A stretch of DNA of 64,000 nucleotides from Capillimicrobium parvum (GCF_021172045.1 NZ_CP087164.1:1736001-1800000), one strand, 5' to 3'. Numbered from the stretch's first letter, positions 9,719-28,098 are shown. Notes: a model not told the origin generated them from the sequence alone. Made by a program: numbers and translations.

Positions 9719-9771
9719 TGCGCCGGAGAGGACTCGAACCTCCACGAGCTATTCGCTCACAAGGCCCTCAA
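9719..9771 (-). repeat. Left attachment repeat: 3' half of tRNA-Leu
   Basis: These 53 bp are identical to 28014-28066 and correspond to the tRNA-Leu from the anticodon loop through the variable arm, T arm, acceptor 3' strand and discriminator. Beyond 9771 the match stops at once, so there is no 5' half here. This is the displaced att copy left by integration into a tRNA 3' end. Confidence 0.95.
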
Positions 9772-9971: not shown

Positions 9972-12146
9972 TTACGCGGCGGGGAAGGCGAAGCGCTCGA
10001 CCTCTGTGGCGAATGCGGTGAGCGGTTGAGGGATCCGGTCGAGTGTCCGCATCAGCGCAGCGATTCTCTTGTAGGTGGTGGCGTGGTTCGGCACGTCGTA
10101 CCGGTCCTCGTAGAAGCGCTTGCGATTCCCGTTGTCTCTTCGATTACGCTGCCACTCTTCCGACGCCATGCCGTGGCCCGGGTACTTCGGAAACTGATCC
10201 CTGAGGACCTCCTCGTCGAGTGCGTCGAAGATGTCGTCGACGGGAAGGGCGAACGGCTGAACGGTGCGGTCGTTGACTGCCGCGTTCTGCAGCAGCGACG
10301 CCATTGCGTTGAGTTCGGTGTCTCGCGACCGCAACGACTCCTGCCGGAAGTCTGCGTCGTCGAGAAGTCGCTGAATGACGGCTGGCTCCAGCTTGTCAAA
10401 GACGACCGCCAGCCGTGCGCGCGTGAACTTCACGAGCACCTCGTGCTCGACGATCTGCGCATGCCGCCCGACGCCGGCGATGGGCACGGTGACGATCCCG
10501 GCGCGGTGGAAACGGCTGCCGAACAGTTCGTCGAGGACGACTTGGTCATGGCGGCCCTCCACGAACAGGATGACCTCGATGTTCGTGAGTAACTCGCCAC
10601 GGTCAAGTCCCATGTCCTCGGCAACATCTGAGTACGCGGTCAGCTCGTCTGGCGAGAACGGGATCAGCTCGGACCGGCCACTGAAGGTGCGACGAACATG
10701 CACGAACCGCGTGTCCGACCCAGCACTCAAGAAGGCGTGCGCGTGCGTGGCGATGAGTCCCTGCGATCCGCGCGTCCTCAGCAGATCGATCAGCCAGCGA
10801 GCCGCAGCGCGTTGGAGCCTTGGGTTCAGATGACGCTCGGGCTCGTCGAGCAGATACAGACGAGGCCGAACGGCAGAGACGCGCTGAACGAGCTTCGGTG
10901 CCGGCTCGTTCTCGTCGCGCCATGGGCTATCTACGCCGCTGGCCAGAGCAAACGCGGCGCCTAGCGTCCGCTGGAAGGGCGGGTCCACCGCCTTGCTGGC
11001 GGCTTCGTCCAGCAGTCGCAGGTATCGATCGATCGTCGCTGACCCGGCCGGACGGCGGTTGTAGACGACAGCCTCGATCTCGAACAGGGCGTGGCGCAGT
11101 CCCAGCTCTGCCCGCCTCATCGCGTCAGCCGCCTCCAGGAGAGCGATCTCGGCCCATAGCCGTAGGCCGTCGGCGACCGAGCTGTGGTCGTAGACGGATC
11201 CGTCAGCAGCCGAGACGAGCGACACGACCACGGGGTCGTCCTCTCGCCACCGCAGCAGGTCTTGAGGCTTCACCTCAAGCTGGTAGCGCTCCTTCAAGAA
11301 GTCGGGTGCCAGACTGGTCGCCAGCTCGCTCAGGTGTCGGCAGCCAGCGAGCGCGAGCGGTCGACAGGCGACGGACCCTTCGTCTCGCACGGTCCAGAGG
11401 GTCTCTGGGGCCGGTCGGTCCTCCACGCGGCGGGCGAAGCTCTCCGCGATGTCGATCCAGTCGTCAACGCCTTCGACCTCTTGCCAGGCGTCACGCAGCC
11501 ACTCGAGTGCGGACTTGGTTGACATGGCCCAGAGCACGTGCGCCAGCCACCCTTCCAGCGCGTCGGCGAGCTGCTGGCGCAGCCACCCCGGATCGGTGCT
11601 CGGGACGTGTACCGGCATGGGAAGCGCAGGGAGGTCGATGGTGCCGATCCGTGTCGCCCGTTCGCTGAATCCGCTGAAGGAGTGAGCGCCGGCGAGCGGA
11701 CCTATGTCATGCAACCAGCTGACCAGGAGACCTGGCCGCCCAGTCGGCGGCTTGCCGCACCAGTCGTCGAGCGCCTCCAGGGCGAAGACCGACGAGCGTG
11801 AGAGCGCCGCGCGATGCGATGGATCCGCCATGGCAAGCCAGGCGGAACGGCCGTCCGGGGTGCTGGGCGGCCCGTCATCGTCCTCGTCGAGCTGCCGCGC
11901 ATAGGTGGCGTTCAGGAGCTGCTCGGTGTCCTCAGCCTCGAGCTGGACCGTGAAGCGGTGCTCTCGACGTGCTGGCCGGCCCTCGATGAGGTCGTCAAGC
12001 GAGCGGGCCCCGTTGGCGATGGTGCTCAGCAGCCGGGACTTGCCGACATCGTTGGGACCGAACAGGACTGTGACGTCCCCTAGGGCGATGAAGCCGCTCG
12101 CGACCGGGGCGTCGGCGCCGGCGAACTCGTAGGCGACTAGGCGCAT
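9972..12146 (-). CDS. AAA ATPase with TOPRIM-like domain (OLD-family-like putative nuclease)
   Basis: This 724-residue protein has an ABC/SMC-type ATPase half with Walker A GPNDVGKS (about residues 30-37), Walker B in LYLLDEPERHLNP and a switch His in IATHAHAFL. A C-terminal region starts ILFVEGRHDQVVLDELF, which looks like the TOPRIM Glu motif, and continues to LAVVFDKLEP. OLD nucleases cut DNA in phage defence. The usual TOPRIM DxD is not obvious (VFDKLE), so nuclease activity is uncertain. It lies 88 bp downstream of the endonuclease gene on the same strand, probably in one operon. There is no UvrD-like partner beside it, so it is not a standard Gabija pair. Confidence 0.75.
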   Translation of the reverse strand: MRLVAYEFAGADAPVASGFIALGDVTVLFGPNDVGKSRLLSTIANGARSLDDLIEGRPARREHRFTVQLEAEDTEQLLNATYARQLDEDDDGPPSTPDGRSAWLAMADPSHRAALSRSSVFALEALDDWCGKPPTGRPGLLVSWLHDIGPLAGAHSFSGFSERATRIGTIDLPALPMPVHVPSTDPGWLRQQLADALEGWLAHVLWAMSTKSALEWLRDAWQEVEGVDDWIDIAESFARRVEDRPAPETLWTVRDEGSVACRPLALAGCRHLSELATSLAPDFLKERYQLEVKPQDLLRWREDDPVVVSLVSAADGSVYDHSSVADGLRLWAEIALLEAADAMRRAELGLRHALFEIEAVVYNRRPAGSATIDRYLRLLDEAASKAVDPPFQRTLGAAFALASGVDSPWRDENEPAPKLVQRVSAVRPRLYLLDEPERHLNPRLQRAAARWLIDLLRTRGSQGLIATHAHAFLSAGSDTRFVHVRRTFSGRSELIPFSPDELTAYSDVAEDMGLDRGELLTNIEVILFVEGRHDQVVLDELFGSRFHRAGIVTVPIAGVGRHAQIVEHEVLVKFTRARLAVVFDKLEPAVIQRLLDDADFRQESLRSRDTELNAMASLLQNAAVNDRTVQPFALPVDDIFDALDEEVLRDQFPKYPGHGMASEEWQRNRRDNGNRKRFYEDRYDVPNHATTYKRIAALMRTLDRIPQPLTAFATEVERFAFPAA

Positions 12147-12234: not shown

Positions 12235-13449
12235 TCACGCCGCTGGGGTGGTGGCCGCTTGGTATCCCAGCGGGAACGTCGCTGCAAGCCATTCGTGCAC
12301 CGCCTCGGGTGAGGCCTTTCCGTTCTCCTTCAGAAGCTCGGCGATGTCGCGACCGGCGATGACGATGACGGGCTGGTTGTCCTCGTGGATCTCGCGCGAC
12401 GGGTCGGGCCCGACGTATGACGTGGTGACGAAGACGCCGAAGTGCCGGTTCCTGAGGCGGGAGATTAGCCGTGACGTGGACGCGACTCCGCAGCCCTTGG
12501 AGGGCTCGAAGCACTTCGCCTCAAGGCTGAAGTCGAGTGGGACCTTTGCCTGGGGCGGACCAACGAACATCTTGCCGAACGCGTCCCTCCCCGAGTCTCG
12601 ACTGCGGCGGGTTGCCTCGACGGAGACGTCTTCCTTGGCGGCCATCTTCCAGAGTTCGATCGCAAGCGCCTCGAAGGCGTGCGGATCGGGCTTGAAGTAC
12701 TCGTAGACGGCTTGGACAAGCGCCGCGTCCTGGGTCGTCTGGGGTCGTTGCTCCGCCGTGGTTCGGTACGGCAGCGTGCTTGGGGACTCGAGAGGTCTGT
12801 ACGTGCCTATCTCCACCCACTCGCGGAACGGTCCTGGACAGTGCTCGCCGAGGGGGTCGCCCTCCTTGAGCTCCGTGATCCAGGCGCGCGGGACGGTCGC
12901 GACGTCGAGGATCGTGAAGACCGCCTTGTAGTTCTGGAAGCGCTCGCCGGCCGTCGACCGCCAGACCGCGACGAGATCATCAAGGGGCGCGACGTCCGCG
13001 GCCCCTGGGACGGCGAGGCCAAGGAACTTGACATGTCGCCCCGGGCCTCGCTGTGCCTTCTGAAAGACGAGGAACGGAGGTACCACGCCGCGTTGCGGCG
13101 TGGCTGCGTGGATCGACTCGAAGACAAATCGCAGCAGCTCGTTCCCGCCTCGCTGTGTCGCGTGCAGAGGCGAGCCGGGCTTCTTGTTGTCGCCGTAGTA
13201 GGTGAAGAGCCCGGTGTTAATGTCGAGCCGGTCCGGCCAGTCGGGATCGGCCGCAGATGTGTAGAGAGCGGCCAGGCGATAGGTGTGCGAGTTTCGCTCG
13301 CCCTTGAATCGGAAGCCTCCTTGGTTCCCGACGGGCAGCAGCCTTGCAAGTGGGTCGTCGGACGCGTTGCCCTGCTCGCCGCCCTCGTAGACGGCATTCA
13401 CGACAAGGTCGGCGTTGGCGAGGTCCGTGAAAGCAACGCGTTCGGTCAT
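12235..13449 (-). CDS. Modification-dependent restriction endonuclease, AspBHI-like N-terminus with Mrr-type catalytic domain
   Basis: This protein has about 404 residues. The N-terminal half (LLPVGNQGGFRFKG, DINTGLFTYYGDNKKPG, RGGNELLRFVF, VPPFLVFQKA) resembles the AspBHI/MspJI-type domain that reads 5-methylcytosine. The C-terminal part has a PD-(D/E)xK core, VPLDFSLEAKCF, with Asp, Glu and Lys in place, then a Ser/Arg-rich helix as in Mrr-like nucleases. The ATG at 13449 has a GAGGGA ribosome-binding site; a longer frame to 13677 lacks one and reads like non-coding sequence. It is predicted to cut cytosine-modified foreign DNA. It diverges from the helicase operon across 181 bp. Confidence 0.75.
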   Translation of the reverse strand: MTERVAFTDLANADLVVNAVYEGGEQGNASDDPLARLLPVGNQGGFRFKGERNSHTYRLAALYTSAADPDWPDRLDINTGLFTYYGDNKKPGSPLHATQRGGNELLRFVFESIHAATPQRGVVPPFLVFQKAQRGPGRHVKFLGLAVPGAADVAPLDDLVAVWRSTAGERFQNYKAVFTILDVATVPRAWITELKEGDPLGEHCPGPFREWVEIGTYRPLESPSTLPYRTTAEQRPQTTQDAALVQAVYEYFKPDPHAFEALAIELWKMAAKEDVSVEATRRSRDSGRDAFGKMFVGPPQAKVPLDFSLEAKCFEPSKGCGVASTSRLISRLRNRHFGVFVTTSYVGPDPSREIHEDNQPVIVIAGRDIAELLKENGKASPEAVHEWLAATFPLGYQAATTPAA

Positions 13450-13630: not shown

Positions 13631-15706
13631 ATGAGCGAACACGGAGCGAGCGACTGGGGTTCAGCCGAGTGGTGCACGGCACTGGCTGAGCACTTCTTCC
13701 GGCCCGACGTGGCTCAGCTGCCCGTCCTGTTCTTCGTGGACGAGGACCTCCTTGCGGCGCTGCATCCCAGCGGCCGCCGGGATGCGGCCGTGGCGTGCCT
13801 CGGTCGCGCGGTCCGCTCCGGCCTAGCGGGTCCGGAGCCTCGCGGGTACTTCGACGGTTTCGAGCGACGTGGCCGGCAGTGGAAGCTCAGGGGCGCCGAC
13901 GGGGCGCCCCCGTTCCTGCACCTGCTTGCGCTGTGCGTCCTTGCCGCAACCCGGATGGGAACCGGGTCGGTAGCGGCCACGAACTACCGGCATCACCTTT
14001 GTGCGCTGCTGGAGCTGGACGATGCGCACATGCCGGCGGGGTTTCGGGACTCGCTGTACTACCTGTGGGAGACCCTCACATGGTGGTTGGACGTGCACCT
14101 CGGCGGCGCGCTGGGGCTCTCGACGATCGTCGAGGACAAGCACTACACGCACATCGGCTATCCGATCTCGCAGACGCTCTTTCGCAGCGCTGACTCGCTC
14201 AAGCTGGATGACTTCTTCCGCTGGATCGCCCTGCGGCCCGGCGAGGCGTTAGACGAGGATGTCCTTGCTGCGCACTTCCGAGCATGGGCGCCAGGCCGCG
14301 GCCTCAGCGCGGGTGCGCTGCGCATGGTCTCCGAGGAGCAGTTCGGCGCGACGATCGCGCGCATCCTGGGCGGATTCGCGCGCACGTGGGATGGCACCGC
14401 CTCGCGAGCGGGCAACGAGCGGCGTGCGGTGCTGCGCGTGGTGATCAGCGCATACCCTCGTGTGTCGGTCAGCCTCATGGCGGAGCAGCCGGATGGCTTC
14501 CCGACTCGACTGCAAGGCCCCTTCGCTGGGCGCACGGTCACGGCCATGGCGCAGGACGGCGTCTTCACCCTGTCAGGCAGCGTCGAGGGCCGCATGCTCC
14601 TCAGGGGTCTCGTGCTCGGCTCGGGCGATGCTCGTCTGGTCCTGGCGGGCGGCGAGGTTCACGTGCTGCAGCTCGACCCAGAGCTCGGTGGCTGGGCCAC
14701 CACCTCATCCATTGAGCCGGGCGTGCGCCATTGGCTGCTCGTGTCGCCATCGCAGTCAGATGACGTCTTGGCGCAGATCGGACGCTGCGCGCAGGAGCGG
14801 GGAGTCGAGACGGACGCTCCTGGAGCGCTGCGCGGGTGGACCATCGTCCGCAACGTGGTCTTCGACGACGCGGCGGCCCTCAGCGGTGTCTTGTCGAGTC
14901 AACGCCCGACCAACCGCCATCGCCTCACGCTGCGCGGCGGCTTGCCGCTGCGGGCGACAAGCTCCTACCTCGCGGGCGGCGCCCCGGACCTGTGGCTGCC
15001 CGTCGCGCCGAACGATGAGCCGGCGCTGACGCCACTGCTCGATGGGGATCGGCTCGACGTTCGAGGCGAGCAGGTCCGACTTGCGGATGTGATCGACGCG
15101 TCTGACAGCTCGACGCACGTGGTGAGCTGGGCCGGCACGACCCGGAGGTTCACGACGGTGGCATCGGCTGTGCGGTCGCCCCCGCCGACGCAGGTACCGG
15201 CGCACGGCGTGCAGGTCGACACTGACGGCAAGGTCACTGCGCATGAGCCACCGACGATCGATCCGAGCCTTGACGTCCGAATTCAAGGCGCTGTGGTCGA
15301 AGGGCCTGCCGTCCGGCCGCGGCCAGCACCCGTCCTGCTCCATCGCGGTGCCCAGCGGGCCTGGCTCCTAGGGTGCCATCCGGGCCAGGTCGACGAGGTT
15401 CAACCGCCGCGAACCCCAGCATGGCTGACGCGCGCGGGGTTGACGGACCGTCTCTACGAGGCGAGGGCGGCATTCGACGTGGCCTGGCTGGTTCAGCGGT
15501 GGACGCTCGCGCCTGCGCTCCGCATCCGGGCCGTGCTGGACGAAATGCCCAGCGAGGACGTTGGCGAGTCGGCGGAAGCTGTGGCGCTGTGGGCCCGTCT
15601 CCTGCTCAACGCGACGCTCATCGTGCGCGATGACGGCGCGCCGGAGCGTCTGGATCTGTACCGCGTCCTGGCCGACAGGATCTCGGACGACGCAGGCGTG
15701 GCATGA
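13631..15706 (+). CDS. Unrecognised large subunit, first gene of the DUF1998-helicase defence operon
   Basis: This soluble protein of about 691 residues has no transmembrane segment or enzyme motif that I recognise. The first ~250 residues are helical and rich in W, L and H (LLALCVLAATRMGTGSVAAT, FRDSLYYLWETLTWWLDVHL). The middle is beta-rich with many G/V/L repeats, as in a sandwich or barrel (FTLSGSVEGRMLLRGLVLGS). ATG 13631 is preferred; a GTG at 13592 is possible. The end overlaps the next gene by 4 bp (ATGA), so it is co-translated with the helicase partners. It could be a targeting or scaffold subunit, comparable in position to the unassigned Dru proteins; this is inference. Confidence 0.8.
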   Translation: MSEHGASDWGSAEWCTALAEHFFRPDVAQLPVLFFVDEDLLAALHPSGRRDAAVACLGRAVRSGLAGPEPRGYFDGFERRGRQWKLRGADGAPPFLHLLALCVLAATRMGTGSVAATNYRHHLCALLELDDAHMPAGFRDSLYYLWETLTWWLDVHLGGALGLSTIVEDKHYTHIGYPISQTLFRSADSLKLDDFFRWIALRPGEALDEDVLAAHFRAWAPGRGLSAGALRMVSEEQFGATIARILGGFARTWDGTASRAGNERRAVLRVVISAYPRVSVSLMAEQPDGFPTRLQGPFAGRTVTAMAQDGVFTLSGSVEGRMLLRGLVLGSGDARLVLAGGEVHVLQLDPELGGWATTSSIEPGVRHWLLVSPSQSDDVLAQIGRCAQERGVETDAPGALRGWTIVRNVVFDDAAALSGVLSSQRPTNRHRLTLRGGLPLRATSSYLAGGAPDLWLPVAPNDEPALTPLLDGDRLDVRGEQVRLADVIDASDSSTHVVSWAGTTRRFTTVASAVRSPPPTQVPAHGVQVDTDGKVTAHEPPTIDPSLDVRIQGAVVEGPAVRPRPAPVLLHRGAQRAWLLGCHPGQVDEVQPPRTPAWLTRAGLTDRLYEARAAFDVAWLVQRWTLAPALRIRAVLDEMPSEDVGESAEAVALWARLLLNATLIVRDDGAPERLDLYRVLADRISDDAGVA

Positions 15707-16590
15707 GCTACGAGCAGCTCTCCCAGTGGGTCGCTGAGATCGGCCACCACGACTTCGAGCGCTTCGCCGAGGCCCACGCCTGGGCGACGCCTGGCAGCCG
15801 CAAGGAGTCCCCATTCGCCGCGCTTCGAGAGCTGTCAGCGCTCGCTTGCATCGAGGTCGACTGGCGGCGGCGGCGATGGGGCGCGGCGCCACCCTGCCTG
15901 ACGTTGCTGCCCGACGCCGCCGGACACGGGCTGCTGGTCGGAGCGCGCACCGCGCGGCTCACAAGCGAGGTCGACGAGCGCATCCAGGCCCACGACGCCA
16001 TCGCCATCCCGGTCCGCCAGAGCCGGGCACCCGATGCCATCTTCATCGCGGCCGACTCGGAGCGAGCACTCATCAAGGCGGCGGCATCGCTTGACATCCC
16101 CTATGCCCATTCCGTCGTGGAGCGCCTCGCAGCTGTCCTGCCCGATCTGAACGCTCACCTCGCAACCCGACGAACCCCGTCCATCGTCATGCACTACGGG
16201 GTCGACCGCTACGACATCGATCGGCAGTGGCTCCCGGCCGAGCGCGATGACAGCCCCGGGCTCTACCTCTACGAACGCTCGGGGCCAAGAACGATCCACT
16301 TCGTCGATGCCGACGGCGCCCGGTATGAGACCGACCTCGCAGTCGGAGCGTGGGCTGAGGCACGAAGGCTCGGCAGAGACGACCTGCTGTGGTGGCGGCC
16401 CGATGGGGTCAACGGGACGCTGGACGTGCCGATGTTCCTGCCGCTTCCGTCGCTGCACGCGCGGGCCGCGACGCTGTGCAGCGGCCTGTCGAGTGAGTAC
16501 GACAACGGAAGCCAGCTGTACGCCAACGTCCCAGAGTGGCTCGCACGGCGGATCGCCGCCGATCTCGAGCAACGCCTCGTAATCAAGTAG
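15703..16590 (+). CDS. Unrecognised 295-residue subunit of the helicase defence operon
   Basis: The ATG overlaps the previous stop by 4 bp, and the helicase starts 13 bp after this gene. The N-terminal ~75 residues (SPFAALRELSALACIEVDWR, RRWGAAPPCLTLLPDAAGHG) look like a winged-helix fold. The middle (LLVGARTARLT, VPDAIFIAADSE-type strands) alternates strands and helices. The C-terminal region has the aromatic stretches GLYLYERSG and RDDLLWWRPDG. No catalytic motif is evident. In sandwich-like form it resembles small accessory subunits that sit beside large helicases in defence operons. Function unknown. Confidence 0.75.
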   Translation: MSYEQLSQWVAEIGHHDFERFAEAHAWATPGSRKESPFAALRELSALACIEVDWRRRRWGAAPPCLTLLPDAAGHGLLVGARTARLTSEVDERIQAHDAIAIPVRQSRAPDAIFIAADSERALIKAAASLDIPYAHSVVERLAAVLPDLNAHLATRRTPSIVMHYGVDRYDIDRQWLPAERDDSPGLYLYERSGPRTIHFVDADGARYETDLAVGAWAEARRLGRDDLLWWRPDGVNGTLDVPMFLPLPSLHARAATLCSGLSSEYDNGSQLYANVPEWLARRIAADLEQRLVIK

Positions 16591-16603
16591 AAGTAGGCGC
16601 TAG

Positions 16604-19600
16604 ATGCAGCTTGAGCAGACCTTCCAGGCCCTTCGCGAGGGTCTGTTCCGGTACTACGACACCCCGTTCGCGCTGCGCAGCGATGTGCTCGAGCAGGAGC
16701 GCCGCCAGCTGCTGGATCGAGACGGCGTGTCATGGCGCAAGCCGTTCGTTGAGCCGATCCGGGACTGGAGGAACGCGCCGGGGTCCATCGCTGAGGCCAT
16801 CTCAGAGGCTCGCGGCCCGGCGGGCCTCTCAGAGCTTGTCTCGGCGGGCCTGATGGAGGGCGTGCCGTCCCTTCGCCTCCATCAGCAGCAGATGCTTGCC
16901 TCCGCCATGGCGGGACGGCATTCCGTCGTGACGGCTGGCACCGGCTCTGGCAAGACGGAGGCCTTCCTCCTCCCGATCTTGGCTGACCTTGTCCGCGAGT
17001 CGGCGGGCTGGACGGACCCCGCCCCGGTCGGCGAGGACTGGTGGACGTCGAAGGGGCCGTGGCGAGCGCAGCGAGGTGAGGGGGACGGCCGGCCGGCAGC
17101 GATCCGGGCGCTGGTCATGTATCCGATGAACGCGCTGGTCGAGGACCAGCTTGTCCGCCTTCGCCGGGCGGTCGACGGGCCGGCGGCGCGGGCCTGGCTC
17201 AAGCAGCACCGCCCAGGACATCGGTTCTACTTCGGGCGCTACACGGGCCAGACGCCGGTCTCCGGCAGCCGAGAGAGCGATACGGCGGTCGATCTGCTTC
17301 GCAGGAGCCTCAGGCTGCTTGACGGGAGGTCGCGCAAGGCCTCCGCGATGGAGGAGGCTGACCCGGATAGGTATGGCGGGGTGTCCTACTTCGTGCCGCG
17401 CCTGGATGGCGGCGAGATGCGGTCGAGGTGGGACATCCAGGAGGCACCGCCCGATCTCCTGATCACGAACTACTCGATGCTCAACATCCTGCTTCGACGC
17501 AAGCGGGATGAGCGACTGTTCAGGGCCACCCAGGAATGGTTGGAGCGCGACGACAGCGTCTTCACGCTCGTCATCGACGAGCTGCACATGTACCGCGGCA
17601 CGCAGGGAAGCGAGGTCGCCTACCTGCTCAGGAACCTGCTCGATCGCCTGGGACTCATCGACCGGCCCGAGAAGCTGCGGATCCTGGCGACGAGCGCCTC
17701 GCTCGAGCAGGAGCGAGACAGAGGGTTCATCGAAGGGTTCTTCGCGCAGCCCATCGACCGCTTCGACATCTGGGCTGGCGAGGCAGAGCCGCTTGGCGAC
17801 CCTCCGGCTGACCTCTCGCCGCACCTGGCGACCATCATGTCGGCCTCGGAGCGGGACGACGAGGAGGCCCGGACCCTCGCACTGCAGCTGCGTCTACCGG
17901 CCGCGATCACCGATATGTGCAAGAACGACGACGGCGGTGCGGCTGCCCGCAGCGTCACCGACCTCGGCGAGGGCCTGTTCCCGACCATCCAGGACGAACA
18001 CCTTCGGGAGTCTGCGGCCTACGCCGCCCTCAACCTCGCGGGCCACGCGGGGATGCGCGTCCGTGGCCACCTCTTCCTGCGGACGGTGCTCGGGGTCTGG
18101 GCTTGCTCGAACCCTGAATGCAAGCCTGGGCACGCGGATTCGCGACGCAATATCGGGACGCTGTACGACCAGCCTCGCTACCGGTGCGAGGAGTGCGGCG
18201 CCCGGGTCCTCGAGCTCCTCTACTGCGAGACCTGCGGTGACGTCTTCCTCGGGGGCTACACAAGCGAGGAGCAGGACATGCTGGCATGGCACCTGTTCCC
18301 TGACTCTCCAGACCTTGAGGGCATCCCAGAGCGCGCACGGCTGGCGAAGGACCCGACGACGTTCCTGCTCTACTGGCCACAGCGCGAGGACCCGGCGGTC
18401 CCCTACAAGCATGGGGCGCACTGGGAGCGCGGGGCGTACCGGTTCGCGTTCCGACGATCTCGCTATGAGCCCATGTCGGGGCGTGTCCAGAATCAGAAGG
18501 TCGGCGCGACCGGCTGGACCTTTCACGTCACGTTGAAGGACGGAAGCGATCCAGACGCGACCGCCCTGCCGAAGGTCAATCCGCTGCCGATCTTCTGTCC
18601 GAGCTGCGGCGATAACTCTGAGCGGTATGCCTTCGGCCGGGAGGCCCGGGCCGTCGAGGATCGCTCGCGGACGCATTCGTCCATCCGAGCGATGGGCATG
18701 GGCTTCGAGAAGGCCAACCAGGTCCTGGCCGACGAGCTCATGCGACAGATGGGCGACCGCCGCAAGCTCGTGCTGTTCTCCGACAGCCGCATGGACGCCG
18801 CCAAGCTGTCCGCCGGGCTTGAGACGTCTCACTACCGCGACCTGGTGCGGCAGCTGCTGTTCCAGTCGATCGCGGATGAGGCCGCCAAGACCGGCATGGT
18901 CGAGCTCGCGCTGGCTCGGGCGACCGGCGCAGACACGTCCGCTCAGGCGACCGAGGCGCGACGGTGGCTGAGGGCACAGGAGCCGCAGCACGCGCCCCTG
19001 ATCGAGGACTACGCGCGCGACGACATCGACGATGAGGCCGACGCCGCTCTGGCCGAGCGGATACTCACGCGCCTGCGATCGCCGGCTACCCCGCTGGCCA
19101 CCCTCTCGCAGGCCGTGACCGACAAGCTGCTCCTTCTCGGCGTCAATCCCGGCGGACCGGCCTACGACCTGTCTGGCTTCGGGCCCGAGGACAACCGCAA
19201 GCCGTGGCACGAGATCTACGAGTGGGCAGCTACGCCTCCTCGGTCGAAGCACCCGGACGACCTCAGCGAGGATGGGCGTCGCCTCCTCGCGGAGATCAGA
19301 CGCCTGTCTCGAGAGGAGGCCGTCAACAGCATCTACTCGGGCGGTGGTCGTGATATCGAGTCGATCGGCCTTGCCTTCACGACGCTCGATCCGACGACCA
19401 CGCTCTCGGTGCCTACGGGGATAGACGCCGCCATCTTCCGCGACATCCTCAGCGGGGCGATGCGCATCCTCGGCGCGCGTCGGCGCTTCATCGGCATGCG
19501 TGATCCCGACGACGATATGCCCACCAACCTCCGGCGCTGGCTCAAGGAGGTGGCGGCAGCCCAACAGGTTGACGAGGAGGTGCTCGGACTGCGCGTCGCG

Positions 19601-21967
19601 GAGAGCCTGGCTGGGGGGGTCGACCGGTGGCTCATCGAAACGGGTGCGCTCTGGCTCGCCCCGGCTGGTGAGTCCCAGTGGCAGTGCCCGACGTGCCTGC
19701 GTGTCCATCTCCATTCGGCCGGTGGCGTCTGCACGTACTGCCGAGGCCGCCTCGGTGCGCCTGAGGAAGCCACGGCCAGCGACGGCAACTACTACGCCTG
19801 GCTGGCCAGCTCCGGCGGACACGCGTTCCGCCTGCACTGCGAGGAGCTGACGGGACAGACAGGCAGGTCCGAGTCGGGCCGGCGCCAGACGGCGTTCCAG
19901 GGGATCTTCCTCGAGGACGAGCTCGAGCGGGTCGACACGATCGACCTCCTGTCGGTGACCACCACGATGGAGGCAGGCGTCGATATCGGCAGCTTGCGCG
20001 CGGTGATGATGGCCAACATGCCTCCGATGCGCTTCAACTACCAGCAGCGCGTTGGACGGGCGGGACGGCGAGACGATCCGCTCGCGCTAGCCCTGACCAT
20101 CTGTCGCGGCAGGAGTCACGACGACTACTACTTCGATCACCCCGAGAAGATCACCGGGGATCCTCCGCCCGAGCCGTACATCGACCTCTCGCGCCCGGAC
20201 ATCCTCAAGCGCGTGCTGGCGATCGAGGTCCTGCGACAGGCGTTCAGGCAACTCGGGATCGAGGACGATGCCGCTGAGCTGGGATCGAACGTCCATGGTC
20301 AGTTCGGGGTGGCAGGCGACTGGCGGTCGAAGCATGAGACCTACGTTCGAGACTGGATCGCGCATCACGGCGAGGATGTCGATCGCTGCCTCGACGCCCT
20401 GCTGAGTTTGACGCTGCTCAAGGAGCAGCGACCGATGCTGCGAGAGTTCGTGGCAGGCGAGATGCTGGAGCGCATCGGCGAGCTCGCCGACGCGGCGCTG
20501 GCCGCGTGGGACCTGAGCCAGGTGCTCGCCGAAGGGGGCCTCCTGCCGATGTTCGGCTTCCCGACGCGGGTGCGATACCTGTTCCACGGACGTCCCACGG
20601 GCTACCCCTGGCCGCCAGCAGCGACCGTGGATCGCGACCTCGAGATCGCCGTGAGCCAGTTTGCCCCGGGATCGGAGACGCCGAAGGACAAGGCCATCCA
20701 CGTTGCCGTCGGTGTTGCCGCCTGGGACGCAATCGGGGGACGGGCCTTCCAACACCCAGACCCGCTCGGTCCCCGCGAGGATCTCCTCTACTGCCGCGAC
20801 TGCCTCCATCTGGAGCCGGCCGACGGCCGGGACCCGACCGCGTGTCCCGTCTGCGGCAAGAGCGACCCGGTCTTCTCCAGAATCGACCTTGCCCAGCCGC
20901 TGGGATTCCGGACAGACTGGAGCCCCCGCAACTACGACGGTCGGTTCGAATGGCGTCCGGCAGCGTCACCGGGGCGGCTGTCACCAGGCGAGGCGAGGGG
21001 CGGCGCGAGCGTCGAGAACCTCGAGGCGCGGATCGGCTCTGACCGGCTGTACGTCGTCAATGACAACGGGGGGATCGGCTTTGAACTGGCGCCCGCCAGG
21101 AACCCAAGGTTCAACGGGCTCTTCTCGGTCGAGCTGAAGAACGACCCCTCGCACCGCGGGCTTGACATCCCTGCCCTGGCGGAGGAGCAGGCGGTGAACG
21201 TGTCGTTGGGCTCTCGTCAGGTCACCGACACCCTGCTGCTCGCGGCGGGTCAGATCCCAGAGGAGCTGCGGCTCGATCCCAGGACGGTCGCCGGGAAGGC
21301 GGCGCTCTACTCCGCCGGCTTCCTGATCCGCGAGTCCGCCGCTCGGCAGCTCGACGTCCAGGGCCGCGAGCTTCGCGTCGGCCTGTGGTCAGAGCCGCAG
21401 CTCGGCAGCGACCCACGAGGTTGGATCTTTCTGGCTGACGCACTGGAGAACGGAGCCGGCTACTGCACGCATCTCGGAGAGCCGGATCAGCTCAGGAAGT
21501 TGCTCGCGTCTGCTCGTGCCTACGTCGAGGAGCTTGCCGATGACGTCGACCATCCGTGCGACTCGTCCTGCTATGACTGCCTGCGGTCCTACGAGAACCA
21601 GGCCTACCACGCGCTGTTGGACTGGCGCCTGGCTCGCGACTGGCTTGACCTCATCGAAGGGTTGCCGCTGAACGTCGACAGGTGGTCTCAGACGGAGGAG
21701 CAGGTCGCGCGGAGCTTTGCCAGCGCGTTCGACGCGAGGCCGGCTCAGGTCGCCGGGGGCGTGTGGACGTGTGAGGCACAGGACCACCGTCTAATCGTCG
21801 TCTCGCATCCTTTGGAGGACGATCGCGAGGACTGGTGGTCAGAGCGTCTCGCGCGGGCTGTCGCCGATGCGGAGGACCGGGGACTGATCCCGGAAGGAGG
21901 CGCGGCGGAGTGTCGCTCGTCCTTTGACCTCCTACGCAGGCCGGGGGCGGTTTTCGCAGGCCTGTGA
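16604..21967 (+). CDS. Giant DEAD/DEAH helicase with zinc-ribbon inserts and DUF1998-type C-terminus (Druantia DruE-like)
   Basis: This 1787-residue superfamily 2 helicase has Walker A GTGSGKT (about residues 111-118), a DEAH variant DELH (about 324-327), the motif III-like ATSAS (about 361-366), and motifs V-VI VTTTMEAGVDIGS and QQRVGRAGRR (about 1147-1156). Cys pairs suggest several zinc ribbons: CSNPEC...CEEC...CETC (about 500-547), CPSC (about 667), CPTC...CTYC (about 1027-1048) and CRDC...CPVC (about 1397-1425). The C-terminus has the DUF1998/MZB signature CDSSCYDCLRSYENQAYH (about 1652). Size and domain order match DruE, the hallmark of Druantia, better than the split DrmA/DrmB of DISARM. 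It is followed by an overlapping nuclease gene. Confidence 0.88.
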   Translation: MQLEQTFQALREGLFRYYDTPFALRSDVLEQERRQLLDRDGVSWRKPFVEPIRDWRNAPGSIAEAISEARGPAGLSELVSAGLMEGVPSLRLHQQQMLASAMAGRHSVVTAGTGSGKTEAFLLPILADLVRESAGWTDPAPVGEDWWTSKGPWRAQRGEGDGRPAAIRALVMYPMNALVEDQLVRLRRAVDGPAARAWLKQHRPGHRFYFGRYTGQTPVSGSRESDTAVDLLRRSLRLLDGRSRKASAMEEADPDRYGGVSYFVPRLDGGEMRSRWDIQEAPPDLLITNYSMLNILLRRKRDERLFRATQEWLERDDSVFTLVIDELHMYRGTQGSEVAYLLRNLLDRLGLIDRPEKLRILATSASLEQERDRGFIEGFFAQPIDRFDIWAGEAEPLGDPPADLSPHLATIMSASERDDEEARTLALQLRLPAAITDMCKNDDGGAAARSVTDLGEGLFPTIQDEHLRESAAYAALNLAGHAGMRVRGHLFLRTVLGVWACSNPECKPGHADSRRNIGTLYDQPRYRCEECGARVLELLYCETCGDVFLGGYTSEEQDMLAWHLFPDSPDLEGIPERARLAKDPTTFLLYWPQREDPAVPYKHGAHWERGAYRFAFRRSRYEPMSGRVQNQKVGATGWTFHVTLKDGSDPDATALPKVNPLPIFCPSCGDNSERYAFGREARAVEDRSRTHSSIRAMGMGFEKANQVLADELMRQMGDRRKLVLFSDSRMDAAKLSAGLETSHYRDLVRQLLFQSIADEAAKTGMVELALARATGADTSAQATEARRWLRAQEPQHAPLIEDYARDDIDDEADAALAERILTRLRSPATPLATLSQAVTDKLLLLGVNPGGPAYDLSGFGPEDNRKPWHEIYEWAATPPRSKHPDDLSEDGRRLLAEIRRLSREEAVNSIYSGGGRDIESIGLAFTTLDPTTTLSVPTGIDAAIFRDILSGAMRILGARRRFIGMRDPDDDMPTNLRRWLKEVAAAQQVDEEVLGLRVAESLAGGVDRWLIETGALWLAPAGESQWQCPTCLRVHLHSAGGVCTYCRGRLGAPEEATASDGNYYAWLASSGGHAFRLHCEELTGQTGRSESGRRQTAFQGIFLEDELERVDTIDLLSVTTTMEAGVDIGSLRAVMMANMPPMRFNYQQRVGRAGRRDDPLALALTICRGRSHDDYYFDHPEKITGDPPPEPYIDLSRPDILKRVLAIEVLRQAFRQLGIEDDAAELGSNVHGQFGVAGDWRSKHETYVRDWIAHHGEDVDRCLDALLSLTLLKEQRPMLREFVAGEMLERIGELADAALAAWDLSQVLAEGGLLPMFGFPTRVRYLFHGRPTGYPWPPAATVDRDLEIAVSQFAPGSETPKDKAIHVAVGVAAWDAIGGRAFQHPDPLGPREDLLYCRDCLHLEPADGRDPTACPVCGKSDPVFSRIDLAQPLGFRTDWSPRNYDGRFEWRPAASPGRLSPGEARGGASVENLEARIGSDRLYVVNDNGGIGFELAPARNPRFNGLFSVELKNDPSHRGLDIPALAEEQAVNVSLGSRQVTDTLLLAAGQIPEELRLDPRTVAGKAALYSAGFLIRESAARQLDVQGRELRVGLWSEPQLGSDPRGWIFLADALENGAGYCTHLGEPDQLRKLLASARAYVEELADDVDHPCDSSCYDCLRSYENQAYHALLDWRLARDWLDLIEGLPLNVDRWSQTEEQVARSFASAFDARPAQVAGGVWTCEAQDHRLIVVSHPLEDDREDWWSERLARAVADAEDRGLIPEGGAAECRSSFDLLRRPGAVFAGL

Positions 21968-22980
21968 GCGCACCGGTCGTTCAGAACCTTCCGAGCGTCT
22001 CGCCGTCAGGTCTGCGGGGCTTGCGCGAATGCTTCCTGAGGGTCGCCTTCGCTCAGAGTTCCACAGGACCTGCACCGCCCGGCGATGCGCAGCTGATCGG
22101 TCAGGCGGTGCACGCCACGCTAGCTGCCCTGGTCGAGCCGGGCCCGCCGTTCGACGAGCGGTCCGGCTCGCTTACCCGGACCTTCGAGAGCGCCCTCACC
22201 GACCTTGCCGGGCCACGGCCGGTACGTCGGTCCCGCGTCGCTGCCGCGCGCCTGACGAATGTCGCGAGTCGCGCCGTCTCCCTGGTCGTCGAGGCAGGCG
22301 AGCCAGTCGAGCTTCGCTGCGAGCAACTGCTTGAGAGTCACGCCGGGCGTATCAAGGGGATCCTCGATCTCACAATCAGATCAGCGGTACTGCATGCCGT
22401 CGTGGACTACAAGACCGGCACCGTCCTAGACGACGAAGGCGCGCTGGCGACCCACCTGCAAGATCAGCTCGCCCTCTACGGCGTGCTTGAGGAGGCGCGA
22501 ACGGGCCACTGGCCCGATCGCGCAGTGATCCTTCGCTTCGGCGGCGCACCAGTGGAGTGGAAGGTCGACCGGACACGGTGCGAGGAGGTCGTGCAGGAGG
22601 CGCTCGAGCTCCGCGCCCGCTACCTCGACCACCTCGGCAGCCGACCGCCCGCCTCTCCAGCTCCGAGCGTGTACCGACACTGCTCGTTCGCGCCGCGATG
22701 CGAGGCGTTCTGGGACGCGTTCACCGACGAATGGGCCGCCCCGCTCGCTGTGCGAGGACGGGTGGTGTGGTCTGAGCGAAGCGCTGCGGGCGGGCTGACC
22801 GTGAAGCTGGAAGAGGTTGAAGGTGTGTGCGAGGGGCACGCCGCGGTGCAGGGACTCGCCGAGCCTGAAGGTCGGGAGATCAAGCCGGGTGACACGCTCG
22901 CGCTCGTTGGACTCTGGATCGACCGCGACCAGAACCTAAACGGGGGCGCTTCAACGAGGATATGGGTTTCGGCTTCCTGA
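21964..22980 (+). CDS. Cas4/RecB-like PD-(D/E)XK nuclease, last gene of the helicase operon
   Basis: This 338-residue protein has a nuclease core with D135 in KGILDLT and the D148-K150 motif in VVDYKTG, followed by the QDQLALYGVL helix (QxxxY motif). This is the RecB/Cas4-type PD-(D/E)XK arrangement. A Cys near the N-terminus (LRECFLRVAFA) and two Cys in YRHCSFAPRCEAFW recall the Cas4/AddB iron-sulfur cluster, though one ligand seems missing. GTG 21964 overlaps the helicase stop (GTGA). The last ~70 residues form a small beta domain. It probably degrades DNA opened by the helicase. Confidence 0.85.
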   Translation: MSAPVVQNLPSVSPSGLRGLRECFLRVAFAQSSTGPAPPGDAQLIGQAVHATLAALVEPGPPFDERSGSLTRTFESALTDLAGPRPVRRSRVAAARLTNVASRAVSLVVEAGEPVELRCEQLLESHAGRIKGILDLTIRSAVLHAVVDYKTGTVLDDEGALATHLQDQLALYGVLEEARTGHWPDRAVILRFGGAPVEWKVDRTRCEEVVQEALELRARYLDHLGSRPPASPAPSVYRHCSFAPRCEAFWDAFTDEWAAPLAVRGRVVWSERSAAGGLTVKLEEVEGVCEGHAAVQGLAEPEGREIKPGDTLALVGLWIDRDQNLNGGASTRIWVSAS

Positions 22981-23191: not shown

Positions 23192-23644
23192 CTAGACGGA
23201 ACGCTCAGCGTTTGCCAGCGCTGAGCGCTCGGTGACCAGTCTGGTGATGGCCCGAGCAACGGTCGTGGGATCCTGATGCTCCCAATAGCGAGCCACGATC
23301 CAGCCGGCGTTCGCCAGCGCTCGGTCCACTCGACGATCACGTTCAACGTTGCGTTGCAGTTTGGGTGCCCAATACTCCTGATTCCGCCTTGGGCGCGTGC
23401 CGTGTTCTGGGCACACATGCCAGAAGCAGCCGTCGATGAAGACCGCAGTGCGCGACCGAGGAAAGGAGATATCCGGTCGGACGCTGAGTCCGTCCGCTAG
23501 TCGCAGCGGTCGATCGACGAAGAACCTGAGGCCGGCGCGATGAAGTAGCGACCGAACTGCGACCTCGGGACCCGTATCCCTGCGGCGGTTCGCGCGCATC
23601 CGTATCGAAGTCGCCTCGTCGGCAGGCTGTGGATAGCCAGTCAT
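23192..23644 (-). CDS. vsr: Very short patch repair endonuclease
   Basis: This 150-residue Vsr-family protein has RMRANRRRDTGPEVAVRSLL at the N-terminus, the catalytic Asp in VRPDISFPR, and the AVFIDGCFWHVCPEH segment with the metal and zinc ligands. Vsr nicks T:G mismatches that arise when 5-methylcytosine deaminates. Its start overlaps the end of the C5-methyltransferase gene by 4 bp, so the two are co-expressed. The minus strand puts it downstream of the methyltransferase. Confidence 0.93.
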   Translation of the reverse strand: MTGYPQPADEATSIRMRANRRRDTGPEVAVRSLLHRAGLRFFVDRPLRLADGLSVRPDISFPRSRTAVFIDGCFWHVCPEHGTRPRRNQEYWAPKLQRNVERDRRVDRALANAGWIVARYWEHQDPTTVARAITRLVTERSALANAERSV

Positions 23645-24870
23645 TGCCGAGTGCCGGCCTTGATCTGTACCCCGCGGGGACCCTGTCCCGGGCCCGGATG
23701 GTCGTCATGATCCCCCCGCAAAGCAAGGTATCGAGTGGGCACTGGGGCGGGCACCTCGGCGGGCGGACAGTCGTGTCGCTGCCTAGGGAGACTGGAGGGC
23801 ACTCCGAGGTCCATATGTCCAAGCAGTTGAGTTCTGATTGCTAGACCGAGTACCTCGCCGAGGGCCACCGGAACCGCGTTTCCTATCTGTCGGCGCACGG
23901 ATGTGTAGCCGCCGGAGAACCGGTGGGTGTCGGGGAAGGTCTGTAGTCGGGCCATCTCGCGAGCGCTGAGCCTGCGATTGCGCCAATGAAACGGTCCGGT
24001 CGCCGAGCCCGGTTGCGCCTGGATAGTCCAGGAAGGGCGATCCTTCGCAAGCTTCAAGAGGAATGACCAATACTTACGGCGCCATCCAAAGAGAGGCTCT
24101 CCATCGCCCTTGCGCGTGTGGTGCAGGTAGTTGCGGCCCTCCGGTATCGATGGCAGGAGTCCGGCCCACTGCCCTCCGGCGGCTAAAGCCGGGTCCCAAT
24201 CGTCGCTGTCGAGGTCTGCGAGTGCATCCCAGGCAGTCGTGAACCGAGGCGCGCCGTCCGGCGCGCTCCGTCCGTGTGTCGCTTGCGGTGCAGCAAACTC
24301 GAGACCACTGCGCTCAGCGAGCACGAAGACTCGCTCCCGCCTCTGGGGCACGCCGAGGTCAGCAGCGTCTACGTGGATGATGGACGGTCTATAGGACGTA
24401 CCGTGCCGGCCGTTGACGTCCTCAAGGACACGTGCGAGGAGTTCGACGGCTTGCTCTTCGGTGCTGCCGGCCCGCGGCTTTGCAACGAGGCCCTTCACGT
24501 TCTCGAGCACCATCACTCTCGGCAAGGCTGCATCCAGAACGTCGAAATACGCGTGTAGCGTGCGTGCTCTCGGGTCGCTCATCCGCGCCGGGGTCCCGTT
24601 GCTCCACTGCCCTGACTTAGAGAACGGTTGACACGGCGGACCGCCTGCGACGAGTGTCACCTCGCCAGGCTTGAGTTCGAACTCCTCCAAGAGGCGCTTC
24701 ACGTCTAGTTTCTCGGCATCGCCCTCGCTGGCTACTCGCCAGGATGTGTTATCGGCGATCGTCCGGCGACAGTCCCGGTCCCGCTCGACACACCCTGCGA
24801 CGTGAAACCCGGCTGCCTCGAGGCCGAGGTCTAAGCCCCCGGCGCCAGTGAAGAGCGACAATACGTTCAC
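23641..24870 (-). CDS. DNA (cytosine-5) methyltransferase
   Basis: This 409-residue protein has the C5-methyltransferase motifs in order: LFTGAGGLDLGLEAAGF (I), GGPPCQPFS with the catalytic Cys (IV), VMVLENVKGL with ENV (VI), VPQRRERVFVLA (VIII) and RQIGNAVPVALG (X). The part between VIII and X is the target-recognition domain and gives no clue to the site. It protects or marks DNA and is paired with vsr. The last ~60 residues are low in structure. It may be the modification arm of the helicase system, since Druantia type II loci carry a C5 methylase; or it may be a stand-alone pair. Confidence 0.93.
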   Translation of the reverse strand: MNVLSLFTGAGGLDLGLEAAGFHVAGCVERDRDCRRTIADNTSWRVASEGDAEKLDVKRLLEEFELKPGEVTLVAGGPPCQPFSKSGQWSNGTPARMSDPRARTLHAYFDVLDAALPRVMVLENVKGLVAKPRAGSTEEQAVELLARVLEDVNGRHGTSYRPSIIHVDAADLGVPQRRERVFVLAERSGLEFAAPQATHGRSAPDGAPRFTTAWDALADLDSDDWDPALAAGGQWAGLLPSIPEGRNYLHHTRKGDGEPLFGWRRKYWSFLLKLAKDRPSWTIQAQPGSATGPFHWRNRRLSAREMARLQTFPDTHRFSGGYTSVRRQIGNAVPVALGEVLGLAIRTQLLGHMDLGVPSSLPRQRHDCPPAEVPAPVPTRYLALRGDHDDHPGPGQGPRGVQIKAGTRQ

Positions 24871-25435: not shown

Positions 25436-26056
25436 ATGCCTACGCTCCTCATCACCCGCAATGAAGCCGCCCAGCTCAGTGGCGCCTCGGCCGCGACCGT
25501 CAACAAGGCGATCGAGCAGCGTGTCGTGGCGATCAAGTCGGTCGGCAGCGCCTCACTAGTCGACGCTCGCGATGTCGGCGCGCTCACGCTGTTCGCTGGA
25601 CTGCGCTTTGGGCTGCCGGTCATCGAGAAGCGCCGGTTGGCGCGGTGGCTGCGCAACGCGCCGCTCGGCGACGAGACGGCCCTGGGGACGGGGGTGATCG
25701 TGCGCAAGACACCCGAGCTTGAGGAGGCGATGGAGGACGCGCTGCGTTACGCACGCCTCAAGGAACGGTTCTTTGAGACCAGCCTTGATCGCCAGGGCGG
25801 CGAGCCGGTGATCCGGGGGACCCGCGTGCCAATCAGGGGCCTGGCCAGGCAGATTGAGGCTGGCGAGGGTCTTGCCGTGCTGCGCGAGCAATACGAGGGC
25901 ATGGATGAGGACGCGTTTGAGTTCGCGGTCCAGTGGGCCCGGGCGAACCCCCGGCGGGGACGCCCAACCCGAGAGGCCGCTTCCAACGGCTTCGGTGAGC
26001 CCGCAAGTCGGCAGGCGCACATCGCTCGTCGTCGTCGCGAGCTGGCGCACGGGTGA
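25436..26056 (+). CDS. DUF433-type antitoxin
   Basis: This 206-residue protein starts with a small winged-helix-like segment (ITRNEAAQLSGASAATVNKA) that probably binds DNA. It ends in a DUF433 domain around residues 120-165 (GGEPVIRGTRVPIRGLARQI, then GEGLAVLREQYEGMDEDAFE). DUF433 proteins are often paired with DUF5615 PIN-like toxins, and the next gene is exactly that, overlapping by 4 bp. It is expected to neutralise the toxin and repress its own operon through the palindrome at 25408-25424. Confidence 0.85.
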   Translation: MPTLLITRNEAAQLSGASAATVNKAIEQRVVAIKSVGSASLVDARDVGALTLFAGLRFGLPVIEKRRLARWLRNAPLGDETALGTGVIVRKTPELEEAMEDALRYARLKERFFETSLDRQGGEPVIRGTRVPIRGLARQIEAGEGLAVLREQYEGMDEDAFEFAVQWARANPRRGRPTREAASNGFGEPASRQAHIARRRRELAHG

Positions 26057-26454
26057 AACTGTGGGTTGACGCTTGCTTGACGCCCACTCTTGAAGGCGTC
26101 GCGCATGGGCGCGGCTACGAGGCGACATCGAACCGCCGGCGCGGCTTGCTGGCCGCGCCGGACTCGGAGCTCTTTCCGATCCTCGTCGCCGAGGACTGGG
26201 TCCTCGTGACGAACAACGAGATCGACTTCCGCAGGCTCGCCGTCGCCCACGAGTTGCATCCTGGCCTTGTCATCCTGCCCCAGGGACGGGTCGACCAGCA
26301 GCGCACCTGGCTGCAACGCGTGATCGACTTCATCGAAGCCCGCTCCGGGCAAGACGGTGAGGAGCCGTGGGCCTGGATGACGTGCCGCATCGTGACGTTC
26401 GACGACGAGGCCGAAGAGATCCACGCAGCGTGGCTTCCCGACCCGCTGCCGTGA
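26053..26454 (+). CDS. DUF5615 PIN-like toxin
   Basis: This 133-residue protein starts with a GTG overlapping the antitoxin stop. Acidic residues sit at PIN-like positions: KLWVDACLTP at the N-terminus, then VAEDWVLVTNNEIDFRRLAV in the middle, which matches the family's core Asp/Asn-Asp-Phe pattern. PIN-like toxins are metal-dependent RNases. The size fits the family, and the pairing with DUF433 supports the call. The pair may stabilise the island. Confidence 0.83.
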   Translation: MKLWVDACLTPTLEGVAHGRGYEATSNRRRGLLAAPDSELFPILVAEDWVLVTNNEIDFRRLAVAHELHPGLVILPQGRVDQQRTWLQRVIDFIEARSGQDGEEPWAWMTCRIVTFDDEAEEIHAAWLPDPLP

Positions 26455-26546
26455 AGCGCGGCATCTGGGTCGGCGCGGACACCGGGGTGCTCGAACGATT
26501 GTCGAGACCCGGCGGGGTGGAACCTCCGAGCGCCGTCCCAATCGTC

Positions 26547-26936
26547 ATGGAGGACCTGCTCCGACCCACGGAGGTTGCGCGCCTGCTCGGTGTCTCGCGA
26601 ACCTGGCTGTACGACGCCGCGAAGGTCGGTCGCGTGCCGTCGGTTCGCATCGGCGGCCCAGGCGGTCCGCTCCGGTTCGTACGCGCGGACCTCGAAGCTT
26701 GGCTCGACGAGGCTCGCGCCGCGTGGCGGCCCGGCGACAGCAGCGCCGCCACGTTGCTGCGCGTTGCCGCCGAGCATCAGGACGGCCTACGCACTGCCCC
26801 AGATGACCGACTCGGTCGCCGCGGCCGCACCACGCAGAAGCGTGGTCTCCAGGTGGCCGTAGAACCGCTCCGTCGTCGTGATGGACGCGTGACCAAGCTG
26901 TCGCTGGACGTAGACGAGCGGCTGCCCCGTCGTTAG
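26547..26936 (+). CDS. Excisionase-like helix-turn-helix protein
   Basis: The protein is up to 129 residues, with a MerR/excisionase-type helix-turn-helix at the start: LLRPTEVARLLGVSRTWLYD, then VRIGGPGGPLRFVRADLEAW. Such proteins direct excision by the element's recombinase. Residues after about 80 lie antisense to the integrase end (26787 on) and look non-protein-like, so the original C-terminus may have been lost. A GTG at 26451, overlapping the toxin stop, is an alternative start that would add 32 residues and make it the third gene of that operon. Confidence 0.7.
   Translation: MEDLLRPTEVARLLGVSRTWLYDAAKVGRVPSVRIGGPGGPLRFVRADLEAWLDEARAAWRPGDSSAATLLRVAAEHQDGLRTAPDDRLGRRGRTTQKRGLQVAVEPLRRRDGRVTKLSLDVDERLPRR

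Positions 26937-28013: not shown

Positions 28014-28098
<85 letters not shown>

What the first reader, a model, noticed from the sequence alone, without database searches (positions are those of the whole stretch)
13631..22980. Four-gene helicase-nuclease operon: candidate undescribed defence system related to Druantia
The sequence shows four tightly coupled genes: a 691-residue protein and a 295-residue protein that I cannot assign, a 1787-residue DEAH helicase with several zinc ribbons and a DUF1998-type end, and a Cas4/RecB-like PD-(D/E)XK nuclease. The overlaps are 4 bp at 15703 and 21964, with a 13-bp gap at 16591-16603. DruE-sized DUF1998 helicases define Druantia, but the known types as I recall them (A-B-C-D-E; M-F-G-E; H-E) do not include a Cas4-like nuclease. 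A C5 methyltransferase/Vsr pair sits just downstream on the other strand. The inference is a new type in which the nuclease acts on the DNA the helicase opens.
Basis: partly seen in the sequence, partly recalled or inferred. Interest (0 to 1): 0.85.

Follow-up and report, generated by a model that had tools for sequence, protein, structure and literature searches.

The report
Druantia type IV defence operon
This is a bacterial anti-phage gene cluster of an already catalogued type (Druantia type IV: helicase, nuclease and two helper proteins), carried here on a small mobile element together with a DNA-marking enzyme that turns out to accompany this system in most of the genomes examined.

Summary
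The four genes are real and as described, but they are not an undescribed system. Each matches the Druantia type IV profile set of PADLOC: DruF4 (1e-84), DruL4 (5e-53), DruE4 (1,960 bits over 1,781 residues) and DruK, the PD-(D/E)XK nuclease (8e-33). The order F-L-E-K recurs in distant phyla. Three things go beyond the catalogue entry. (1) The neighbouring C5 methyltransferase and Vsr pair is probably part of the system: a C5 methyltransferase lies within 4 kb in 18 of 21 well-flanked relatives, often as methyltransferase-F-L-E-K-Vsr in one operon, and the window's copy is the only one found in its 5.95-Mb genome. Where Vsr is missing, an HhH-GPD glycosylase often replaces it. (2) DruF is modular: in pairs whose DruE is 97-98% identical, its N-terminal half can fall to about 20-30% identity. 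(3) The operon sits in an 18.3-kb integrative element flanked by a perfect 53-bp repeat of tRNA-Leu. Best explanation: DruF/DruL sense infection and direct DruE to load on DNA, DruK cuts, and host 5mC may mark self. No function was tested.

The parts
9719..9771 (.). left attachment-site repeat of the integrative element (53 bp)
   Evidence: perfect 53-bp direct repeat of 28014-28066
9972..12146 (-). AAA/OLD-like ATPase gene, cargo of the element
   Evidence: AAA_21 1.4e-9; weak hits to AriA and GajA profiles
12235..13449 (-). AspBHI-like 5mC-dependent restriction endonuclease, cargo (open frame reaches 13677; start at 13449 fits the family match, which begins at residue 79)
   Evidence: RE_AspBHI_N 1e-61 and Mrr_cat; PADLOC mREase_II 495 bits
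13631..15706 (+). druF (type IV)
   Evidence: PADLOC DruF4 1.1e-84 over residues 6-657
15703..16590 (+). druL
   Evidence: PADLOC DruL4 5.2e-53 over residues 3-293
16604..21967 (+). druE, YprA-family SF2 helicase with MZB/DUF1998 domain
   Evidence: PADLOC DruE4 1,960 bits over residues 4-1784; invariant helicase motifs in an alignment of 35 sequences
21964..22980 (+). druK, RecB/Cas4-like PD-(D/E)XK nuclease
   Evidence: PADLOC DruK 8.1e-33; PDDEXK_1 1.3e-14; catalytic residues invariant or nearly so in an alignment of 19 sequences
23192..23644 (-). Vsr mismatch endonuclease
   Evidence: NCBIfam vsr 133.6 bits, over cut-off
23641..24870 (-). C5 cytosine methyltransferase, probable modification arm
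   Evidence: PF00145 1.4e-45; only PF00145 match in the genome; recurrent association
25436..26454 (+). DUF433 plus DUF5615/PIN-like pair, toxin-antitoxin-like cargo
26367..26936 (+). HTH_17 (excisionase-like) gene
   Evidence: PF12728 9.4e-11
26787..27883 (-). tyrosine integrase, split over two frames
   Evidence: Phage_integrase 2.1e-21; one frame in a homologue in L056
28014..28066 (.). right attachment-site repeat, 3' end of tRNA-Leu(GAG) 28014-28098 (-)

Best explanation
A Druantia type IV anti-phage system with its DruK nuclease. Likely mechanism (inferred): DruF, perhaps with DruL as partner, is the sensor and scaffold; its changing N-terminal half faces the phage. On infection DruE, a slowly evolving YprA-family helicase, loads on DNA with exposed single-stranded regions and opens it. 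DruE shows no recognisable nuclease motif of its own here, so DruK supplies the cut in trans. The adjacent C5 methyltransferase probably marks host DNA as self, and Vsr (or an HhH-GPD glycosylase elsewhere) repairs the T:G mismatches that 5mC deamination creates. Shown here: gene identity, order, conserved catalytic motifs, recurrent methyltransferase association, modular DruF. Inferred: sensing, loading, cutting and methylation gating. The confidence given is for membership in Druantia type IV and the helicase-plus-nuclease reading; the methylation step alone is rated about 0.4-0.45 (first rival entry).
For: Profile matches of all four genes. F, L and E in this order in 35 of the 40 DruE-seeded loci, the other five being truncated or degraded, and DruK in 21 of 35 loci with at least 1.2 kb after DruE. 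DruK keeps E, D, DYK and QxxxY motifs. The DruE C-terminus shows no conserved D/E/K triad and no Vsr match. Helicase motifs invariant. Solved DruE homologues exist (9wae, 9tu7), and type III DruE loads on 3'-tailed DNA (PMC13192584). C5 methyltransferase within 4 kb in 18 of 21 well-flanked loci against 1 hit in 194 kb further out; in 3 of 4 DruL-seeded loci; in a Nostoc plasmid as dcm-F-L-E; sole PF00145 match of the window's genome. HhH-GPD in place of Vsr. DruF-DruL fusion in G062 and DruL matching the C-terminus of long DruF2 profiles.
Against: No phage assay or biochemistry for type IV was found in the library. Some loci lack DruK or a methyltransferase (L022, L031, L040). In L014 and L017 the methyltransferase sits with NgoMIV- or NotI-like restriction enzymes, so there it may be plain restriction-modification. 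The window's DruK has Tyr in place of one of four otherwise conserved cysteines. No fold or domain assignment for DruF or DruL supports a sensor role directly.
Confidence: 0.85

Rival explanations
1. Type IV Druantia is methylation-gated, a restriction-modification-like machine: F-L-E-K attack DNA that lacks the partner C5 methylation, and the methyltransferase can be exchanged without changing the effector core.
For: Methyltransferase in 18 of 21 well-flanked loci; adjacent and co-directional (within about 50 bp) in L015, L024, L026, L027, L028, L037, L045 and L053; present in deep branches of the DruE tree. L033 and L053 have DruE 97% and DruL 93-95% identical but unrelated methyltransferases. 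T:G repair partner in most. Druantia II and DISARM also carry methyltransferases.
Against: Some complete loci have none; in a few it comes with its own restriction enzyme; a swap of specificity with an unchanged effector needs an effector that reads methylation loosely, which is unproven.
Confidence: 0.45
2. The methyltransferase/Vsr pair is an unrelated passenger (orphan methyltransferase or remnant of a restriction-modification system) that piled up in the same defence island, and F-L-E-K respond to a phage trigger or DNA structure only.
For: Defence islands collect systems; L014 and L017 have REase partners; this element also carries AspBHI-like and AAA genes. Type III Druantia senses phage proteins without methylation (PMC13316683, PMC13192584).
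Against: The enrichment, operon-like packing and recurrence across phyla are far above the background of 1 per 194 kb in outer flanks; only one PF00145 match in 5.95 Mb.
Confidence: 0.4
3. Not defence but DNA repair or element maintenance: a helicase-nuclease set like YprA/MrfA with a RecB-like nuclease.
For: DruE belongs to the YprA family, which includes repair helicases (6znp; PMC12458937).
Against: Much closer to defence DruE (1,960 bits; 9wae 1,099 bits); lies in a defence-loaded mobile element; patchy distribution, 5 of 396 genomes of the phylum.
Confidence: 0.07

Closest known systems
Druantia type IV (Payne et al. 2021, PADLOC; DruE + DruF + DruL, with DruK profiles in PADLOC-DB)
   Same: All four proteins match the type IV profiles or DruK; the order F-L-E-K recurs in relatives
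   Different: Published definition stresses absence of DruM; here and in most relatives a C5 methyltransferase is next to the core
Druantia type II (DruM-F-G-E)
   Same: C5 methyltransferase, DruF and DruE present; DruE2 profile 1,695 bits
   Different: No DruG match; DruL in its place; DruK nuclease; DruE4 profile scores higher (1,960 bits)
Druantia type III (DruH-DruE)
   Same: DruE-family helicase as core
   Different: No DruH; type III DruE carries PLD nuclease domains fused to it, here the nuclease is a separate gene
DISARM (DrmA, DrmB, DrmC, methyltransferase)
   Same: YprA-family helicase, MZB/DUF1998 module, nuclease and methyltransferase
   Different: Helicase not split, nuclease is PD-(D/E)XK not PLD, DrmA profile only weakly matched (1e-11)
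Dcm/Vsr pair
   Same: C5 methyltransferase with Vsr, no REase recognised directly beside it in the window
   Different: Sits in a mobile element beside a Druantia operon, convergent with druK

Membership tests
Druantia type IV | DruE | tested here: met
   DruE4 profile 1,960 bits, residues 4-1784
Druantia type IV | DruF | tested here: met
   DruF4 1.1e-84, residues 6-657
Druantia type IV | DruL | tested here: met
   DruL4 5.2e-53, residues 3-293
Druantia type IV | no DruG | tested here: met
   No DruG profile among the hits of DruF, DruL, DruK, Vsr or the flanking REase; the lists for DruE, the AAA protein and the methyltransferase were cut at 25
Druantia type IV | no DruM | tested here: inconclusive
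   An adjacent C5 methyltransferase matches DruM2 (220 bits) slightly less well than type II methyltransferase profiles (233 bits)
Druantia type IV | anti-phage activity | not testable with these tools
   needs plating assays
Druantia type II | DruG present | tested here: not met
   no match
Druantia type III | DruH, and DruE with fused PLD nuclease | tested here: not met
   no DruH or PLD match; DruE3 profiles score at most 361 bits
DISARM | DrmA and DrmB as separate genes, DrmC PLD nuclease | tested here: not met
   single 1787-aa helicase, PDDEXK nuclease
[quoted passage not shown]
   absent at this locus; a candidate ARMADA operon lies elsewhere in the genome (L086)
Type II restriction-modification | REase gene beside the methyltransferase | tested here: inconclusive
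   no Pfam REase next to the window methyltransferase; unassigned REases cannot be excluded

The most novel reading that the evidence does not exclude
Type IV Druantia is an epigenetically gated helicase-nuclease: an exchangeable C5 methyltransferase (with a T:G repair enzyme) marks self, a hypervariable N-terminal half of DruF supplies recognition, and a near-frozen DruE with DruK in trans is the effector.
Probability: 0.4. Interest if true: 0.65.

Novelty: new member of a known kind. Interest (0 to 1): 0.42.

Why it matters
The operon itself is a catalogued type, so the claim of an undescribed system falls. Type IV was defined by computation only, and no experimental work on it turned up in the searched library. 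The methyltransferase/T:G-repair association and the modular DruF give concrete, testable ideas on how a Druantia lineage may tell self from phage, and they blur the border between types II and IV. The 18.3-kb element shows how such a set may move as one package.

Tried and rejected
A new Druantia type: rejected, since all four genes match type IV or DruK profiles. Search for a degenerate Vsr nuclease in the DruE C-terminus by profile comparison with the Vsr proteins of these loci: no match. Folds: DruL model is good (pLDDT 87) but no PDB chain matched at E<=0.001; residues 61-135 only resemble a common ferredoxin-like arrangement at Z about 5. DruF model is weak (pLDDT 70, pTM 0.41); residues 427-512 resemble Ig-like sandwiches at Z up to 8, within the range of unrelated matches. 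Pfam on 34 DruF proteins: nothing. Idea that DruF-N is matched to methyltransferase specificity like a type I S subunit: partial correlation about 0.31 given DruE, without a significance test and driven largely by few pairs; left open. A clean empty integration site in relatives: the tRNA side is conserved but the left flank is not syntenic, so not shown. DruK profile against PDB sequences: no match at E<=0.01.

Full report
Observation. The four genes, their lengths, the two 4-bp overlaps and the 13-bp gap are as stated. Gene 3 carries DEAD, Helicase_C and MZB domains with intact motifs and eight CxxC motifs. Gene 4 is a PDDEXK_1 protein.

Identity. Against PADLOC-DB the four proteins match DruF4 (1.1e-84), DruL4 (5.2e-53), DruE4 (1,960 bits, residues 4-1784) and DruK (8.1e-33). 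Druantia type IV was defined by Payne et al. 2021 (PMC8565338) as DruE and DruF with DruL in place of the type II proteins DruM and DruG, 168 instances, in 11 phyla. The paper's main text does not name DruK; the name comes from PADLOC-DB.

Relatives. A scan of 84,980 species genomes with DruE gave 40 loci at 32-40% identity (best segment) in Acidobacteriota, Alphaproteobacteria, Planctomycetota, Gemmatimonadota, Verrucomicrobia, Bacillota, Nitrospira and others. DruF, DruL and DruE occur in this order in 35 of them; the remaining five are truncated or degraded. DruK follows in 21 of 35 with at least 1.2 kb of sequence after DruE. On the DruE tree DruK is present in several deep branches, with at least six changes of state (quick tree, the window row is a long branch). 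DruK keeps E120, D135, D148-Y149-K150, Q168 and Y172; three further cysteines (206, 240, 246) are invariant and a fourth (column 237) is Tyr in the window, which resembles the Fe-S pattern of RecB/Cas4/AddB nucleases (family knowledge). In loci without DruK other nucleases may follow, for example an HNH protein in L029. The DruE C-terminus has no conserved nuclease triad; Bell et al. report inactivated Vsr domains there for types I and II (PMC12458937).

Methyltransferase association. Counting only DruE-seeded loci with at least 2.5 kb upstream and 4 kb downstream, 18 of 21 have a homologous C5 methyltransferase within 4 kb and 13 have Vsr; in the outer flanks (194 kb) one methyltransferase was found. 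Loci found through DruL instead of DruE give 3 of 4, and a Nostoc plasmid has dcm-F-L-E. In several alphaproteobacteria the layout is methyltransferase-F-L-E-K-Vsr with short junctions. In L042, L047, L049 and L083 an HhH-GPD glycosylase sits between methyltransferase and DruF, and in L053 a glycosylase-like domain, recognised by eye only, appears fused to the methyltransferase. Vsr and such glycosylases share one plausible job, repair of T:G mismatches from deaminated 5mC (established for Vsr; inferred for these glycosylases). The window's methyltransferase is the only PF00145 match in its genome. The methyltransferases belong to several subfamilies and are exchanged: L033 and L053 share 97% DruE and 93-95% DruL but unrelated methyltransferases. 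Counter-evidence: in L014 and L017 NgoMIV- and NotI-like enzymes lie beside the methyltransferase, and L022, L031 and L040 have none.

DruF is modular. Pairwise windows show DruE 98%, DruF C-terminal part mostly 52-72% but N-terminal part 18-28% for L015 and L037; 97%, 60-88% and 16-50% for L033 and L053; 90%, 57-86% and 24-40% for L024 and L028; the near-identical pair L015 and L026 keeps 74-98% throughout. Start codons are uncertain, but low identity extends over some 300-400 columns. This fits a fast-changing recognition module, as proposed for the Ig-like region of DruH in type III (PMC13192584); that is inference. DruL and DruF are fused in G062 (L085), and DruL matches the end of long DruF2 profiles, which suggests the two act together.

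Element. A perfect 53-bp repeat, 9719-9771 and 28014-28066, the latter the 3' end of tRNA-Leu(GAG), frames 18.3 kb with an integrase next to the tRNA. G+C inside is 0.66-0.70 against mostly 0.70-0.78 outside. Cargo: AAA/OLD-like ATPase, AspBHI-like 5mC-dependent endonuclease, Druantia IV, Vsr and methyltransferase, a DUF433/DUF5615 pair and an HTH_17 gene. The integrase lies in two frames where a homologue has one, so it is frameshifted or misassembled.

Mechanism. Type III DruE loads on 3'-tailed DNA and carries its own PLD nuclease domains (PMC13192584). By analogy DruE here opens DNA and DruK cuts in trans. Methylation gating is plausible but untested.

Verdict. Known type, new member, with an association worth testing.

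Noticed in passing
9719-9771 and 28014-28066: Perfect 53-bp repeat at tRNA-Leu(GAG) marks an 18.3-kb integrative element that carries the whole defence cargo; a related integrase lies at the same tRNA in another genome of the family (L056).
   Followed up: partly
26787-27883: The element's integrase is split over two reading frames, so the element may be immobile, or the assembly has an error here.
   Followed up: partly
12235-13449 and 23641-24870: A 5mC-dependent AspBHI-like endonuclease and a C5 methyltransferase sit in one element; their sequence specificities must not clash, or the pair forms a two-sided check on DNA methylation.
   Followed up: no
L086 5609-17000 (same genome, about 5.079-5.090 Mb): A second YprA-family helicase (1867 aa, C-terminal DUF559) followed by a SNF2-type helicase and an Eco57I/N6 methyltransferase: looks like an ARMADA type I operon.
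   Followed up: partly
L082 5946-18840: DruF-DruL-DruE followed by two unassigned proteins (669 and 300 aa) and an Hsp70 homologue, without DruK or C5 methyltransferase.
   Followed up: no
L014 11608-12444 and L041 17263-18111: A homologous protein of about 280 aa follows Vsr in both loci; the L041 copy matches NOV_C.
   Followed up: no
L043 9453-11039: A protein after DruE ends in a stretch matching SspA/DndA (cysteine desulfurase) profiles.
   Followed up: no
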